Shown here: positions 4,634-32,548 of the stretch, one piece after another
Layout: the number at the start of each line of letters is the position of its first letter
Position numbering within the stretch: position 1 is the stretch's first letter
DNA from: Streptosporangiales bacterium
Lineage (GTDB): Bacteria; Actinomycetota; Actinomycetes; Streptosporangiales; WHST01
Length of the DNA stretch: 44,778 bases
Assembly (NCBI GenBank): GCA_009379825.1
Contig: WHTA01000048.1
Coordinates: 1 to 44,778, forward strand
Direction of reading: 5' to 3'
Position numbers and translations under genes: made by a program
The notes under the pieces: model-generated
The model's input: only the letters and a program-made list of their open reading frames with translations
The model's database searches: none
What the model was told of the DNA's origin: nothing

Positions 4634-4911
4634 CCCCGCCCGAGCGCGGAGCGCCCCGCCGAACCGGTTCGCCGGAGGGTCCCGCCGCGGCGGGCCGCGG
4701 TCAGGGCCACCGGGCTTGGCCACCCGGGTTCGCTGCCCGCACCCGCACCCCGCGGCCGGCGGTCCGCACCCCCAACCGCCTGCGGCTACCGGTGGCCGCC
4801 GCCCCCACGAGGCACTGTGCCTGCGCGGCCCCCCGCGGCCTGGGGCCGGCATCTGCGGTCACCGCCGACGCGCAACCGTGGTCGAGGCGTGGCCGCCGCC
4901 CAGGGCTACCC

Positions 4912-5196
4912 GTGGTGGTCGTCCCAGGGTGCGCCGGTCCGGGCCACTCCTGTCGTGGTGGTCGTCCCAGGGCGCGCCGGTCCGGGCCACTCCTGTCGTG
5001 GTGGTCGTCCCAGGGCGCGCCGGTCCGGGCCACTCCTGTCGTGGTGGTCGTCCCAGGGCGCGCCGGTCCGGGCCACTCCTGTCGTGGTGGTCGCCCCAGG
5101 GCACCGGTCCGGGCCACTCCTGTCGTGGTGGTCGCCCCAGGGCACCGGTCCGGCCGCCCCGCCCGCGGCCGTCGGCCAGGGCACCGGTCCGGGCCA
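4912..5196. repeat. 43-bp tandem repeat array in the iclR-tetR gap
   Basis: The 4634-5352 gap contains no convincing gene. It holds tandem copies starting GTGGTGGTCGTCCCAGGGCG: units at 4912-4954, 4955-4997, 4998-5040 and 5041-5083 (43 bp each), 5084-5124 (41 bp), a partial copy from 5125, and a degenerate copy near 5175-5196. Units 2-4 are identical by eye. The period is not a multiple of three, so the long open frames across it are artefacts. It is not CRISPR, since there are no spacers. Each junction can pair CCAC with GTGG across TCCTGTC. Confidence 0.9.
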
Positions 5197-5314
5197 TCCC
5201 GCCGGCGGCCACGAACGCCGGCGCGCGCACCACTGCCAGCCGCGCCGTCGACCACACCTGCGGTCGGCGGGTGGACACGAAACGGGGGCGGGGGTGCCCG
5301 TGCGTGTGCATGTC

Positions 5315-5354: not shown

Positions 5355-6066
5355 GGTTGCTCTCGAGCGCGACGACGCCACCGCTGTCGACACTCCCGAT
5401 GGGTTCGGGGGACAGCGGGTGGGGTCGCGCGGGAAGAAGGCGGAGCAGCGCAAGGCGAGCGTCGAGCGGCTGATGACGCTGGCGCGCAAGCACTTCATCG
5501 AGCGTGGTTACGACGCCACCACCGTGGACCAGATCGCTGCGGGCGCCGGCATGAGCAAGGGCGCCGTGTACTTCTACTTCAAGAGCAAGGCGAACCTGCT
5601 GCTCGCCCTCATCGACGAGGCGGAGCAGCTGACCGTCGAGCCCGCCGTCGAGGCGGTACGGGGTGCCAGGGGGTCCGCGCGCGACCAGCTGGTGGCGTTC
5701 CTGCACGCGCAGTCCGTCGCGGGTCAGGAGCACGCCGACCGGATGATGCTGGTCATCCTGATGTCGATCGAGCTGCACGGCCGTGACGGCCCGGTGGAGG
5801 AACGCCTGATCGCCGTCAACGAGTCGATGAAGAAGCTGCTCAGCGGTGTGGTGACCGCGGGCAAGCGGCAGGGGGTATTCACCAAGAAGGTGCCGGCGAA
5901 GGAGCTCGTCAGCATCATCATGGCGGTCAACCAGGGCTGTTTCCTCGAGTGGTACAGGAACGGCGATCAGCTCGACGGACATCAGCTCGTACGCGCGCTC
6001 AGGACCACGGTCCTGCAGGGCGTCCTGGTCGATGCCGGGCACGGCGGCAGTGGAGGCGATGAGTGA
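5353..6066 (+). CDS. TetR-family transcriptional regulator
   Basis: 237 aa from ATG 5353. An N-terminal TetR helix-turn-helix (RLMTLARKHFIERGYDAT through MSKGAVYFYFKSKANLL, about residues 37-85) is followed by an all-helical ligand domain. The ATG overlaps the operator and suits a leaderless mRNA; an alternative GTG at 5419, preceded by GGGGGA and giving 215 aa, would place the operator in the leader. The much longer open frame upstream only crosses the tandem repeats. The stop overlaps the start of paaA (TGATG), so the regulator heads the catabolic operon. Inferred role: a repressor released by an acyl-CoA or aromatic intermediate, acting at 5337 and 16023. Confidence 0.9.
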   Translation: MVALERDDATAVDTPDGFGGQRVGSRGKKAEQRKASVERLMTLARKHFIERGYDATTVDQIAAGAGMSKGAVYFYFKSKANLLLALIDEAEQLTVEPAVEAVRGARGSARDQLVAFLHAQSVAGQEHADRMMLVILMSIELHGRDGPVEERLIAVNESMKKLLSGVVTAGKRQGVFTKKVPAKELVSIIMAVNQGCFLEWYRNGDQLDGHQLVRALRTTVLQGVLVDAGHGGSGGDE

Positions 6067-7016
6067 TGACACAGGTGATGGACCGCGCCGACGACGCGAG
6101 GGAGCGGGCGCTGCGGCAGCGGGTCAAGGCCGGCTACCAGCTCGAGGACCCGAGTGAGATGACGCCCAGGTACCGCGACGTGCTGGTGAATACCATGCAC
6201 ATCGCCGCGGACCTCGAGGTCGTCACCCTGCCGACGTACTCGCCCGCGATCAGGACCTCGCCCACGCTCGACGACAAGATCGCCATCGCGTCGGCCTGCC
6301 AGGACGAGCTCGGCCACGCCCAGGTGATGTACCGGCTGCTCGAGGAGTTCGGGTACGACACGCAGAGCTTCCTGTTCGAGCGCGACCCGCAGGAGTGGCG
6401 CACGTTCCAGATGCTGGAGTTCCCGCACGAGGACTACATCGAGTCGGTCGTCTCCATGTGCTACGGCGACCGCGCCGGCTACATCACGACCGTCGACCTG
6501 GAGGAGAACTGCTCGTTCGCGCCGTTCGCGCGCTCGCTGCGGAAGGTGAACTTCGAGGAGACGTTCCACATCGGGCACGGCGAGCGCTGGGTGCGGTTTT
6601 TCTGGAACCTCAACGAGAAGTCGCGCAAGCGGGTGCAGCAGGCGGTGGAGTTCTACTTCCCGCTCTGTGCCGCCTGGTTCGGCGTCCCCGACGAGATGAA
6701 GAAGCGCACCGACCAGCTGGCGTACAAGATCCGTGGCGCGTCGAACGACGAGATGCGGCAGAAGTGGCTGTCGCAGGTGGTGCCGTTCAGCGAGTCGCTC
6801 GGCATCCGGGTGCCCGCGCACTACGACGAGGAGAGCGGCAAGTTCGTCCTCGACTACGAGCCACCGATCTACCTGGACGAGAAGACCCGCACCTGGGACT
6901 ACGACAGGCAGATCACCTGGGAAGAGCAGTTCAAGATCTGGAAGAAGGGCAGCAGGCACAAGGTGCCGTCCATCACCAGACTGCACCACGAGGTGTACGG
7001 CGAGGACCTGTGGTGA
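6066..7016 (+). CDS. paaA: PaaA-like catalytic subunit of a CoA-thioester ring epoxidase
   Basis: 316-aa protein resembling PaaA, the di-iron monooxygenase subunit of phenylacetyl-CoA 1,2-epoxidase. Iron-ligand motifs of the ferritin-like fold are visible: DELGH (E81, H84) and FEETFHIGHGERW (E164/E165, H168). The length is normal and start-stop coupling to tetR is tight. In the known system PaaA works with PaaC (structural), PaaB and PaaD (Fe-S assembly), with electrons from PaaE. Here A, B, C and a split D are present but no PaaE gene is in the window. The rest of the phenylacetate pathway is absent and ligases and UbiD decarboxylases share the operon, so the true substrate may be another aryl-CoA. 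The family call is firm; the substrate is inferred. Confidence 0.88.
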   Translation: MTQVMDRADDARERALRQRVKAGYQLEDPSEMTPRYRDVLVNTMHIAADLEVVTLPTYSPAIRTSPTLDDKIAIASACQDELGHAQVMYRLLEEFGYDTQSFLFERDPQEWRTFQMLEFPHEDYIESVVSMCYGDRAGYITTVDLEENCSFAPFARSLRKVNFEETFHIGHGERWVRFFWNLNEKSRKRVQQAVEFYFPLCAAWFGVPDEMKKRTDQLAYKIRGASNDEMRQKWLSQVVPFSESLGIRVPAHYDEESGKFVLDYEPPIYLDEKTRTWDYDRQITWEEQFKIWKKGSRHKVPSITRLHHEVYGEDLW

Positions 7017-7023
7017 TCACGCC

Positions 7024-7335
7024 ATGACCACACAGGCGGAAGTCGTCGAGGCGCTCGAGGACGTGCACGACCCGCACGTCCCCGTGAGCTTGCGCAGCAT
7101 GGGCATGCTCGCCGGCGTGGAGGTGAGCGGTGAGCACGTGCAGGTGGAGGTGTGCATCCCTTGTATGGCTTGCCCGGCGTCGGAGTTCATCACCGAGCAG
7201 GTACGGGAGCGGGTGCTCGCGCTCGACGGTGTGACGTCGGTCGACGTGACTCCCGGGTTCCACCTGTACTGGGACCGCGAGTCGGTCGATCCGAAGGCGC
7301 GTGAGCTGTTACGAACCGCCGGCATCCAGCTCTGA
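7024..7335 (+). CDS. PaaD N-terminal half (MIP18/DUF59 domain), stand-alone
   Basis: 103-aa protein starting at ATG 7024, 8 nt after paaA. It matches the DUF59/MIP18 domain that forms the N-terminal half of PaaD: EDVHDPHVPVSLRSMGML at the start and VCIPCMACPASEFI, containing the family's conserved Cys-Pro plus two extra cysteines (CIPCMAC). It ends where normal PaaD continues into a zinc-ribbon tail; that tail is encoded separately at 8394-8645. DUF59 proteins help mature iron-sulfur or di-iron centres, so this should serve the PaaA-like oxygenase or its reductase. Confidence 0.8.
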   Translation: MTTQAEVVEALEDVHDPHVPVSLRSMGMLAGVEVSGEHVQVEVCIPCMACPASEFITEQVRERVLALDGVTSVDVTPGFHLYWDRESVDPKARELLRTAGIQL

Positions 7336-7346
7336 GTGGAGGAAGC

Positions 7347-7619
7347 ATGAGCGAACCGGCTGCGGTGCGGAAGACGTTCGACCCGGAGCGCGAACGCGGC
7401 GGGCTGACGCCCCGCTACTACGAGGTCTTCGCGCGGAAGAGCTCCGACGACCACCTCGCCCACGTGGGTTCTGTGGAGGCGCCCAACGACGATCTCGCGC
7501 AGGTGCGCGCCTGGTACATCTACGACCAGCACTCCTGGAAGGAGATGTGCGTGGTGCCCACCGAGGCGATCATCCCCGTCAGAATCGGCAAACACTCGAC
7601 CCGGATCAAGATGGCCTGA
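7347..7619 (+). CDS. paaB: PaaB-like epoxidase subunit
   Basis: 90-aa protein with the PaaB pattern YYEVFARKSSDDHLAHVGSV, then APNDDLAQVRAWYIYDQHSWKEMCVVP. PaaB is the small subunit that bridges PaaAC heterodimers in phenylacetyl-CoA epoxidase. ATG 7347 follows GGAGGAAGC. It has a typical length and sits between the PaaD half and paaC in the same operon. Confidence 0.85.
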   Translation: MSEPAAVRKTFDPERERGGLTPRYYEVFARKSSDDHLAHVGSVEAPNDDLAQVRAWYIYDQHSWKEMCVVPTEAIIPVRIGKHSTRIKMA

Positions 7620-7620
7620 C

Positions 7621-8397
7621 ATGAAACCTTCCCTCGACGGTGTCGACGCGATGACACGAACGTTGCTCCAGGACGAGTTGCTGTGTCTGGCGGACACCAA
7701 GCTGGTGCTTGGCAACTGGTTCGCCGAATGCGTGATGAACGGCAAGTCGCTGCCCGACTTCGCGGCCATGCTCGGCATGTGCACCGCGTCGTACGGCCAG
7801 ACCCGCGCGATCTACCACTACCTCGACACCCTGGACCACTCGTACGGCCATCTCGAACGCGGCCGCGGCCCGGGCGAGATCAGGTCGATGGACCTGCTGG
7901 ACGCGCCACCGCAGAACTGGCAGGACTTCATCGTCTCCATCTGGCTGGCCGAGCAGGCGACCTGGTCGATGGCGTCGGGTTTCCTGCACAACAGGGACAG
8001 GACCGTAGCCGGCGTCGCACGCAAGATCGGTGAGGAGGCGTACTTCCATCTGAAGTACGCGGTCGGCTGGTTGCGCCTGATAGAGGCGTCCGACGTCGAG
8101 AGCGAACGCGCACGCGAGTCGCTGCGGCAGCGCTACCCGCTCGCGCTGCGTTGGTTCGGCCCATACACCGAGGACGATCTCCACACCGCCGGCCTTCGTG
8201 ACGACCCGCTGGTCGACGTCAAGGCCGGCTTCGTGCACGAGGTGAACGACGTCACCAGCTCGCTCGGGGTCTCGACCGACGACCTGCCCGCTGCGTCGTT
8301 CGCGCCCGACTGGCGCACGGACGCACGCCGCACCGGTGAGCTGCCTGCCGGCCTGTTCGAGGTGATCAGGTTCAAGGACGAGGAGCTCGCCCGATGA
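7621..8397 (+). CDS. paaC: PaaC-like structural subunit
   Basis: 258-aa ferritin-like helical protein of the PaaC type, the non-catalytic partner of PaaA. Recognisable segments are LLCLADTKLVLGNWFAECVMNG, WQDFIVSIWLAEQATWSM and KIGEEAYFHLKYAVGWL. It starts one base after the paaB stop; an internal ATG at 7651 is an alternative. Its stop overlaps the next gene (ATGA). Sequence is typical at the core helices and divergent elsewhere, which fits a paralogue of the housekeeping phenylacetate enzyme. Confidence 0.83.
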   Translation: MKPSLDGVDAMTRTLLQDELLCLADTKLVLGNWFAECVMNGKSLPDFAAMLGMCTASYGQTRAIYHYLDTLDHSYGHLERGRGPGEIRSMDLLDAPPQNWQDFIVSIWLAEQATWSMASGFLHNRDRTVAGVARKIGEEAYFHLKYAVGWLRLIEASDVESERARESLRQRYPLALRWFGPYTEDDLHTAGLRDDPLVDVKAGFVHEVNDVTSSLGVSTDDLPAASFAPDWRTDARRTGELPAGLFEVIRFKDEELAR

Positions 8398-8645
8398 CGG
8401 GGCCGACGCGCGACGGAGGGTCCAGGCGGCCACCGGACAGCGAGCTCTTCCCCGTCGATCCCGACTTCGCCGACGTCGTGTGCCCGGACTGTGCCGGTCA
8501 CGACATCGAGGTCGCGTCGTTGTTCGGCAGCACGACCTCGGAGGTGCTGTTCCGGTGCATCTCCTGCCACTCGCTCTTCAACTGGGTGAAGTGGCGTCAC
8601 CAGCTACCACCTGTCCCAGCGCGCCGTGCCGGCGCAACCGCATGA
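8394..8645 (+). CDS. PaaD C-terminal half (zinc ribbon), stand-alone
   Basis: 83-aa protein with two paired cysteines, CPDC and CISC, around the sequence SLFGSTTSEVLFRC. This is the layout of the C-terminal zinc ribbon of PaaD (CPxC...S.FGST.C...C..C). It lacks the DUF59 domain, which is encoded separately at 7024-7335 with paaB and paaC in between. The start overlaps the paaC stop by 4 bp. Inference: the two chains together replace a normal PaaD. A similar but decayed ribbon lies at 32276-32548. Confidence 0.72.
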   Translation: MTGPTRDGGSRRPPDSELFPVDPDFADVVCPDCAGHDIEVASLFGSTTSEVLFRCISCHSLFNWVKWRHQLPPVPARRAGATA

Positions 8646-8655
8646 TGGAGGTTAC

Positions 8656-9450
8656 GTGACCTACGACGAGTACGAGTTCCTCGAGATCAGCCGCCGCGAG
8701 CGGGTGTTGACCATCGCGCTCAACCGGCCGGAGAAGCTCAACGCGATCAACGGCGGGCTGCACGAGGAACTGTCCCGGGTGTTCGACGACCTGAACAGGG
8801 ACAGGGACATCGACGTGGCGATCCTGACCGGCGCCGGCCGTGCGTTCTGCGCCGGCGGCGACGCCGACTGGCTGGACACCCTCATCGAGGACCCGCTCGG
8901 CTGGGAGCAGCTGAGCGAGGAGAACCGCCGCACGATGATGGGCATCCTGGAGTGCCGGCAGCCGATCATCGCGAAGCTGAACGGCACCGCAGCCGGGCTC
9001 GGTGCGACCCTTGCGCTGTTCTGCGACGTGGTCATCGCGTCCGACAAGGCGAAGATCGGTGACCCCCACGTAAAGGTCGGGCTGGTCGCGGGCGACGGCG
9101 GCAGCGCGATCTGGCCGTACCTCATCGGCTACGCCCGCGCCCGCGAGTTCCTCTACACCGGCGAGCTCCTCACGGCGCAGCGGGCGGCGGACATCGGCCT
9201 GATCAACAGGTGTGTGCCCGCAGACGAGCTCGACGCCGAGGTGGACGCATTCGCGGACCAGCTCGCGAACGGTGCGATCCGCGCGATCCAGTGGACGAAG
9301 CAGGCGGTGAACGCGCCGCTGCGGGAGATCGTGGCGCAGAACCTCGAGCTCTCCCTCGCGCTGGAAGCCAAGTCGAACCTCACGGTCGACCACCAAGAGG
9401 GCATCAACGCCCTGCGGGAGAAGCGGCCGGCGAAGTTCGTCGGACGGTAA
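8656..9450 (+). CDS. Crotonase-fold protein (enoyl-CoA hydratase/isomerase family)
   Basis: 264-aa crotonase. GTG 8656 is preceded by GGAGG at 4 nt. Oxyanion-hole segments are present (GAGRAFCAGGDADWL; LNGTAAGLGATLALFCD). The two glutamates of classical hydratases (E144 and E164 of the rat enzyme, 20 residues apart) align with T118 and H138, so simple enoyl-CoA hydration is doubtful. Other crotonase chemistries on CoA thioesters (isomerisation, ring opening, C-C cleavage, dehalogenation) are possible. It sits directly after the epoxidase genes, where PaaG (epoxide-to-oxepin isomerase, also a crotonase) would be expected. Inference: it processes the epoxide or its product. Confidence 0.85.
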   Translation: MTYDEYEFLEISRRERVLTIALNRPEKLNAINGGLHEELSRVFDDLNRDRDIDVAILTGAGRAFCAGGDADWLDTLIEDPLGWEQLSEENRRTMMGILECRQPIIAKLNGTAAGLGATLALFCDVVIASDKAKIGDPHVKVGLVAGDGGSAIWPYLIGYARAREFLYTGELLTAQRAADIGLINRCVPADELDAEVDAFADQLANGAIRAIQWTKQAVNAPLREIVAQNLELSLALEAKSNLTVDHQEGINALREKRPAKFVGR

Positions 9451-32021: not shown

Positions 32022-32270
32022 CCGTGGGCGAGCCTGGTGCCCGCCTCGAGCCGGATGGTCTCGCCGTTGATCATCGGGTTCTCCGCGATGCTCCTCACCA
32101 GCTTCGCGAAGTCCGTGGGCAGGCCGAGGCGCTTCGGGAAGACGTGGATGTCGGAGAGCCGCTCACGCAGCTGGTCGCTCGCCGCGGCCAGCATCCCCGT
32201 GTCGAAGAGGCCGACCAGGTTCACGTCGATGACCTTGCGGTAGAGGTCGAGCGGGAACATGTCGCCGAGG
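32018..32270 (-). pseudogene. Short-chain dehydrogenase remnant with catalytic core deleted
   Basis: A minus-strand frame encodes about 84 aa of a 3-hydroxyacyl-CoA-dehydrogenase-type SDR. GDMFPLDLYRKVIDVNLVGLFD (mid-protein) is joined directly to TGMLAAASDQLRERL through NGETIRLEAGTRLAHG (C-terminus). The stretch that should lie between, including the Ser and YxxxK catalytic residues, is missing, and so is the NAD-binding N-terminus. The frame stays open, so the internal loss was in frame. It abuts a PaaD tail on the opposite strand. Confidence 0.75.
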
Positions 32271-32275
32271 TGCAC

Positions 32276-32548
32276 GTGGTCTGGTCCGCGGCGGCGGTGT
32301 GGTCGACGCGCGATATTACCGCGTTCGGTCGCGCCCGGCTGGCCGACGTGGGGATCGCCGTGCCGGACGCGGACGGTGCGTTCGACTGCCCGCGCTGCCA
32401 CAGCGAGCGGGTGGTCATCGACAGCGAGTTCGGCGCTGCCCTGTGCCGTCGGCTCGCGCACTGCGAGCAATGCGGCGAACAGCTGGAGGTCATGCGTACC
32501 CGGCCGCGGTCCGGTCAGGTCGTGGGCGCGGGGGACTCCACCTCGTAG
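32276..32548 (+). pseudogene. PaaD C-terminal remnant (linker plus zinc ribbon)
   Basis: The plus frame from about 32276 reads VWSTRDITAFGRARLADVGIAVP, then CPRCHSERVVIDSEFGAALCRRLAHCEQC. This follows the order of the PaaD C-terminal half: W-T/S-T-D linker, GxxxLxxxGIAPP, CPxC, SxFG, CxxC. No DUF59 domain precedes it; upstream DNA is the opposite-strand SDR remnant. GTG 32276 could start a 90-residue product but no clear ribosome site is seen. The end overlaps the convergent thiI gene. Interpreted as debris of another paa-type locus. Confidence 0.65.

What the first reader, a model, noticed from the sequence alone, without database searches (positions are those of the whole stretch)
7024..8645. 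PaaD is split into two separate genes
The DUF59 half (7024-7335) and the zinc-ribbon half (8394-8645) of PaaD are separate proteins flanking paaB and paaC. In canonical loci they form one chain. Each half has clean start-stop coupling, so this looks like a stable architecture and not damage. The DUF59 half also has an unusual CIPCMAC cysteine cluster.
Basis: partly seen in the sequence, partly recalled or inferred. Interest (0 to 1): 0.65.

Follow-up and report, generated by a model that had tools for sequence, protein, structure and literature searches.

The report
Two-piece PaaD in unusual ring oxygenase
A helper protein of an aromatic-ring-opening enzyme, a single chain in E. coli, is made here as two separate proteins, and the same two-piece layout recurs in distant bacteria and archaea, which points to a helper that acts as two cooperating metal-handling parts.

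Summary
Window 7024-7335 encodes a 103-aa DUF59 protein and 8394-8645 an 83-aa zinc ribbon; they match positions 1-88 and 90-144 of the PaaD model TIGR02159. The layout A-D59-B-C-ZnR is not local: I found 45 complete clusters (plus one cut by a contig end) in Actinomycetota, Alphaproteobacteria, Thermus and haloarchaea. In A and C trees they form one clade, sister to all canonical paaABC clusters. Five alphaproteobacterial genomes have the split cluster and no fused PaaD above cut-off. Both halves are under purifying selection. The extra cysteines are real: every split-family D59 has a second loop cysteine (CxxCP or CPC) and none of its zinc ribbons has the fifth cysteine that all canonical ones have; canonical D59s lack the second. 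Twelve fresh loci obeyed this. 'Split' may be the wrong word: a one-residue insertion marks 37 of 38 fused PaaDs and no unfused D59 or SufT, so fusion is probably derived. Separate chains were already named in haloarchaea (NCBIfam NF041868 PaaD, NF041869 'PaaE'), but not, as far as I found, as PaaD's halves. Likely role: a two-protein maturation factor for a PaaA-like diiron oxygenase. New variant of a known kind.

The parts
6063..7016 (+). PaaA-like catalytic diiron subunit (317 aa)
   Evidence: PF05138 165 bits; TIGR02156 110.6 bits, below cut-off 280; E52, E82/H85, D136, E166/H169 align with E. coli PaaA
7024..7335 (+). D59: stand-alone DUF59 half of PaaD (103 aa), loop CIPCMACP
   Evidence: PF01883 60.4 bits; TIGR02159 positions 1-88; predicted fold matches SufT-type DUF59 structures 3cq2/3lno, TM 0.8
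7347..7619 (+). PaaB-like bridging subunit (90 aa)
   Evidence: PF06243 27.7 bits, cut-off 27; TIGR04031 39 bits and TIGR02157 25.9 bits, both below cut-off
7621..8397 (+). PaaC-like structural subunit (258 aa), most metal ligands lost
   Evidence: PF05138 78.8 bits; A/C alignment
8394..8645 (+). ZnR: stand-alone zinc-ribbon half of PaaD (83 aa), CPDC...CISC
   Evidence: PF23451 38.2 bits; TIGR02159 positions 90-144; hhalign to canonical PaaD C-termini prob 98, E 1.9e-13
8656..9450 (+). enoyl-CoA hydratase/isomerase, PaaG-like, conserved next to the cluster in close relatives
   Evidence: PF00378 183 bits; 33% identity to E. coli PaaG; present in L040-L042, L044, L045
9470..11029 (+). acyl-CoA ligase (AMP-binding)
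   Evidence: PF00501 245 bits; also in L040
11026..12558 (+). UbiD-family decarboxylase
   Evidence: PF01977 100.5 bits; also in L040
12593..14239 (+). benzoate-CoA-ligase-like enzyme
   Evidence: TIGR02262 370.6 bits, cut-off 375.25
5422..6066 (+). TetR-family regulator directly upstream of A
   Evidence: PF00440 63 bits; TetR-like ORFs also precede A in L041 and L042

Best explanation
The window carries a PaaABC-like aryl-CoA oxygenase of a separate, deeply branching family in which the two functional parts of PaaD are independent proteins: a SufT-like DUF59 protein (D59) and a zinc ribbon (ZnR). Shown by sequence: homology of both parts to the two halves of PaaD, conserved gene order, purifying selection, conserved diiron ligands in A, and a second cysteine beside the invariant one in D59. 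Inferred: D59 and ZnR act together in trans, as fused PaaD does in cis, to load or protect the metal centre of the A subunit during assembly of A-B-C, and the oxygenase epoxidises an aromatic or heteroaromatic acyl-CoA made by the neighbouring CoA ligases and opened by the PaaG-like enzyme. The substrate is not known.
For: Complementary matches to TIGR02159 and PF23451 over cut-off. Order A-D59-B-C-ZnR in 41 of 41 split-family clusters on long enough sequence and 4 of 4 fresh ones. One clade in A (100/95) and C (96/70), rooted reciprocally. dN/dS 0.19-0.34 for D59 and 0.16-0.21 for ZnR. Both parts are in all 76 clusters on long enough sequence, but no PaaE reductase gene was found in 36 of 41 split ones (the other 5 have a separate ferredoxin) nor in 19 of 33 fused ones, so the client is more likely the oxygenase than PaaE. 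Diiron ligands kept in A. A DUF59 gene also sits in a phenol/methane-type diiron oxygenase operon of the same genome. Published: PaaD is needed in vivo but not in vitro (PMC4498308, PMC9493321).
Against: No experiment shows that D59 and ZnR bind each other or A, or that this complex oxidises anything. The PaaE scan covered only a few kilobases round most clusters. A, B and C are below every PaaA/B/C equivalog cut-off, so the reaction could differ from epoxidation. Co-occurrence within one operon is also expected of any conserved operon gene.
Confidence: 0.65

Rival explanations
1. Fission: a canonical fused PaaD was broken into two genes in this lineage and D59 moved next to A.
For: In canonical bacterial loci the two domains are one chain; gene order differs from canonical.
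Against: The unfused family is one deep clade, sister to all canonical clusters; unfused D59, haloarchaeal D59 and SufT lack the one-residue insertion found in 32 of 33 and then 5 of 5 fused PaaDs; haloarchaeal canonical-clade clusters are unfused too. Not fully excluded: on the A tree the counts tie if the long-branch fused cluster L207 is placed at the base (2 changes; 1 without it).
Confidence: 0.2
2. D59 and ZnR mature the [2Fe-2S] cluster of the electron-transfer partner (PaaE or a ferredoxin), not the oxygenase.
For: D59 is SufT-like and SufT serves Fe-S proteins (PMC4982691, PMC9045647); five haloarchaeal clusters have a 2Fe-2S ferredoxin gene beside them.
Against: No PaaE or ferredoxin gene found with 36 of 41 split clusters, yet both halves are kept in all; no PaaE-type reductase in this window, only elsewhere in the genome.
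Confidence: 0.2
3. The zinc ribbon is an unrelated small regulatory or nucleic-acid-binding protein that only looks like PaaD's C-terminus.
For: Its predicted structure is weak (pLDDT 64.7) and the best fold hits are generic zinc ribbons such as NrdR, none significant.
Against: PF23451 above cut-off with the next family 22 bits lower; hhalign prob 98 over 41 columns; always follows C, the place next to PaaC that PaaD holds in canonical operons.
Confidence: 0.05

Closest known systems
Canonical PaaABCDE phenylacetyl-CoA epoxidase (E. coli, TIGR02156-02159)
   Same: Diiron A, structural C, small B, DUF59 plus PaaD-type zinc ribbon, PaaG-like isomerase nearby
   Different: D is two proteins and D59 stands between A and B; no PaaE; A/B/C far below equivalog cut-offs; cysteine pattern differs
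Haloarchaeal paaABCD + 'paaE' (NCBIfam NF041867-NF041869)
   Same: DUF59 and zinc ribbon are separate proteins; D59 lacks the one-residue insertion
   Different: Order A-B-C-D59-ZnR, belongs to the canonical clade, ZnR keeps the fifth cysteine; there the 55-aa 'PaaE' is the zinc ribbon, not a reductase
SufT (TIGR02945, DUF59 only)
   Same: Same fold as D59 and the invariant CP cysteine
   Different: No oxygenase partner genes, no zinc-ribbon partner, no second loop cysteine; window D59 scores 56 of the 143 bits needed
DUF59 protein in a Phenol_Hydrox diiron oxygenase operon (own genome, L222)
   Same: A DUF59 gene placed within a diiron oxygenase operon
   Different: Different oxygenase family (PF02332), a reductase is present, no PaaD zinc ribbon seen among the genes scanned

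Membership tests
PaaD equivalog TIGR02159 | one chain scoring at least 108.15 bits over DUF59 plus zinc ribbon | tested here: not met
   49.8 and 32.6 bits for two separate chains
PaaD equivalog TIGR02159 | both halves homologous to the model | tested here: met
   positions 1-88 and 90-144
PaaD zinc ribbon PF23451 | score above 27 bits and four zinc cysteines | tested here: met
   38.2 bits; CCCC in all aligned
Canonical PaaA/PaaB/PaaC (TIGR02156/02157/02158) | equivalog cut-offs 280/85.45/133.35 bits | tested here: not met
   110.6/25.9/48.4 bits
PaaA-type diiron oxygenase | diiron ligands in A, mostly lost in C | tested here: met
   alignment with E. coli PaaA/PaaC
Canonical PaaABCDE | PaaE reductase in the cluster | tested here: not met
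   none in window 1-26000; FAD_binding_6 hits only on other contigs
Haloarchaeal PaaD/PaaE NF041868/NF041869 | cut-offs 180/100 bits | tested here: not met
   D59 64.3 bits; ZnR no match to NF041869 at E up to 1
SufT TIGR02945 | cut-off 143.4 bits | tested here: not met
   56.4 bits
Aryl-CoA epoxidase | oxygen- and NADPH-dependent epoxidation of an aryl-CoA | not testable with these tools
   needs enzymology
PaaD (function) | needed in vivo for oxygenase activity | not testable with these tools
   needs knock-outs

The most novel reading that the evidence does not exclude
PaaD is historically two proteins: the unfused D59 + ZnR pair is the ancestral state and the fused textbook PaaD is derived. 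The pair forms one shared metal or persulfide site that needs a second thiol next to the CP cysteine, supplied by ZnR's loop in canonical systems and by D59 itself (at -3 or +2) in the split family; the pair is a dedicated diiron-centre maturase.
Probability: 0.3. Interest if true: 0.72.

Novelty: new variant of a known kind. Interest (0 to 1): 0.5.

Why it matters
PaaD is required in vivo but has no known biochemical function; reviews list it as unknown, and one suggests it serves PaaE or PaaA (PMC4498308). Clusters that keep both PaaD parts with no PaaE gene beside them narrow that choice, and separate genes allow each part to be deleted, swapped or purified alone. The cysteine exchange between the halves gives a precise mutational test. 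It also corrects annotation: the haloarchaeal 'PaaE' examined is a zinc ribbon, several stand-alone ZnR genes are unannotated, and a 2026 survey scored all 32 archaeal pathways as a partial configuration that it defines as PaaA-PaaC only (PMC13186573), whereas every haloarchaeal cluster read here encodes both PaaD parts.

Tried and rejected
Damage or pseudogenisation: rejected by dN/dS and conservation. Unrelated zinc-ribbon family: rejected. Dependence on a complete PaaD elsewhere: rejected by five genomes without one above cut-off. Sequence search of PDB with ZnR gave only chance hits, mostly antibody chains. AF2 of ZnR was too weak for a useful fold search. Literature searches for a split PaaD or for this oxygenase clade found nothing; the library is open access only. 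The polarity of fusion could not be settled by parsimony alone because of the long-branch cluster L207.

Full report
OBSERVATION. The five genes lie as described: A 6063-7016, D59 7024-7335, B 7347-7619, C 7621-8397, ZnR 8394-8645. D59 is a DUF59 protein (PF01883, 60.4 bits); ZnR is the PaaD zinc ribbon (PF23451, 38.2 bits against a cut-off of 27; next family 15.6 bits). Against the full-length PaaD model TIGR02159 the two proteins match positions 1-88 and 90-144 of 146, that is, consecutive halves. A profile comparison of split ZnRs with canonical PaaD C-termini gives probability 98 and E 1.9e-13. The D59 model (pLDDT 85) superposes on SufT-type DUF59 structures with TM about 0.8; the ZnR model is too weak to be informative.

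CONTEXT. Downstream lie a PaaG-like enoyl-CoA hydratase, a CoA ligase, a UbiD decarboxylase, a benzoate-CoA-ligase-like enzyme, a second UbiD, an ABC transporter, a third UbiD and an isochorismatase-fold protein; upstream are TetR and IclR regulators and a molybdenum hydroxylase. No PaaE-type reductase was found in the window; FAD_binding_6 proteins occur only on other contigs. The same genome has a separate canonical paa operon with a fused 196-aa PaaD and PaaE.

DISTRIBUTION. Close relatives (A 77-91% identical) with the same order occur in both genus-mates held, in Amycolatopsis alkalitolerans, and in five alphaproteobacterial MAGs. More distant ones (about 38-52%) are on plasmids of Agrobacterium tumefaciens, haloarchaea and Thermus thermophilus. 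In a 396-genome sample of the phylum, 25 further genomes have a strong A match, but in a 395-genome sample of the window's class only its own genome has one. Names of the sampled genomes are withheld, so I do not name those lineages. With HMMs made from these seeds, 77 clusters were typed: 41 A-D59-B-C-ZnR, one more cut by its contig end (a ZnR match opens another contig of that genome), 33 canonical A-B-C-D fused, and 2 haloarchaeal A-B-C-D59-ZnR. Several ZnR genes are unannotated in the records (Agrobacterium, Haloterrigena, Haladaptatus). The five alphaproteobacterial genomes have no fused PaaD above cut-off.

ALREADY NAMED IN ARCHAEA. In Haloferax mediterranei the paaABC operon is followed by PaaD (DUF59 only, NF041868) and a 55-aa 'PaaE' (NF041869). 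That 'PaaE' matches TIGR02159 positions 100-143, so it is PaaD's zinc ribbon, not the reductase. Separate PaaD parts are therefore recorded for haloarchaea, though I found no text describing them as PaaD halves.

EVOLUTION. A and C are paralogues, so each roots the other. In both halves of that tree the split-order family is one clade (A 100/95; C 96/70) opposite all canonical clusters, with the haloarchaeal canonical-clade clusters next to the fused ones. A D59 tree with SufT as outgroup gives weak but concordant groups (split 74/74, fused 82/90). Fused PaaDs carry one extra residue (E. coli DPEIPVLTITDLG) in 32 of 33 cases; no split-family, haloarchaeal, SufT or Mrp domain has it. Twelve fresh loci agree: 5 of 5 fused have it, 0 of 7 unfused. 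The most economical reading is one fusion in the bacterial canonical lineage. The exception is the long-branch cluster L207: with it, the A tree needs two changes of state, and fission then becomes equally parsimonious; without it, one. I hold a derived fusion at about 0.7.

CYSTEINES. Every D59 has the CP cysteine. In the split family 42 of 42 D59s have a second cysteine in the same loop, at -3 (32, CxxCP) or +2 (10, CPC), and 0 of 41 ZnRs have a fifth cysteine. In canonical systems 0 of 35 D59s have the second cysteine and 35 of 35 ZnRs have the fifth (in most, FGxTxC). Twelve loci fetched afterwards all obeyed. SufT proteins lack the second cysteine. The -3/+2 position changed within the split clade (3 state changes on the A tree). 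This may reflect a needed second thiol provided by either half, but it is confounded with the two-clade phylogeny. It bears on the remark that SufT has only one strictly conserved cysteine whereas most described Fe-S carriers have two or more (PMC4982691). The window's third cysteine (-6) is restricted to its near relatives (10 clusters).

SELECTION. Between the window and three relatives dN/dS is 0.19-0.34 (D59) and 0.16-0.21 (ZnR), against 0.10-0.16 for A.

MECHANISM. A keeps the diiron ligands seen in E. coli PaaA and C has lost most of them (ligand identity from knowledge of the family). PaaD is needed in vivo but not in vitro, suggesting maturation (PMC4498308, PMC9493321). All 76 clusters on long enough sequence keep both D59 and ZnR, but no PaaE gene was seen near 36 of 41 split and 19 of 33 fused clusters (5 haloarchaeal split ones have a separate ferredoxin). 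A DUF59 gene also lies in the operon of a different kind of diiron oxygenase in this genome. I infer that the D59/ZnR pair serves the oxygenase's metal centre or assembly. That they work as a pair, and on which substrate the enzyme acts, is not shown.

VERDICT. Real, conserved, and more interesting than a split gene: a separate family of PaaABC-like oxygenases whose PaaD is two proteins. New variant of a known kind.

Noticed in passing
window 32231-32497 (+): C-terminal remnant of a canonical-type fused PaaD (TIGR02159 positions 46-144, 52 bits; PF23451 44 bits) with no PaaA/C partner nearby; probably a pseudogene fragment.
   Followed up: partly
L095:7488-7655 and NCBIfam NF041869: The haloarchaeal subunit called PaaE is PaaD's zinc ribbon, not the reductase; the name collides with bacterial PaaE.
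   Followed up: yes
window 7347-7619; L093:9217-9408: PaaB-like proteins match TIGR04031, a family named as a radical-SAM-partnered candidate RiPP, better than the PaaB model; that family may really be PaaB-like.
   Followed up: no
L093, L156-L168, L175: Many distant split clusters (Thermus and other Actinomycetota) carry two tandem PaaB-like genes.
   Followed up: no
L041:7847-8608, L042:10715-11476, L045:12186-12962: Alphaproteobacterial split clusters have a nitroreductase-like gene (named from its sequence, not tested by a family search) before the enoyl-CoA hydratase; a candidate electron or flavin partner in place of PaaE.
   Followed up: no
L222 (own genome C18:34500-42500): Phenol/methane-type diiron oxygenase operon with its own DUF59 gene, amidohydrolase and alcohol dehydrogenase.
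   Followed up: partly
L194 (G396:C147): A genus-mate holds a second, 48% identical split cluster besides the close one and a canonical paa operon.
   Followed up: partly
window 4911-5210: Tandem array of 43-bp units (5.5 to 7 copies) between the IclR and TetR genes.
   Followed up: no
L207 (G162:C10): Very divergent PaaABC cluster with a fused PaaD that lacks the fused-type insertion; possibly an independent fusion.
   Followed up: partly
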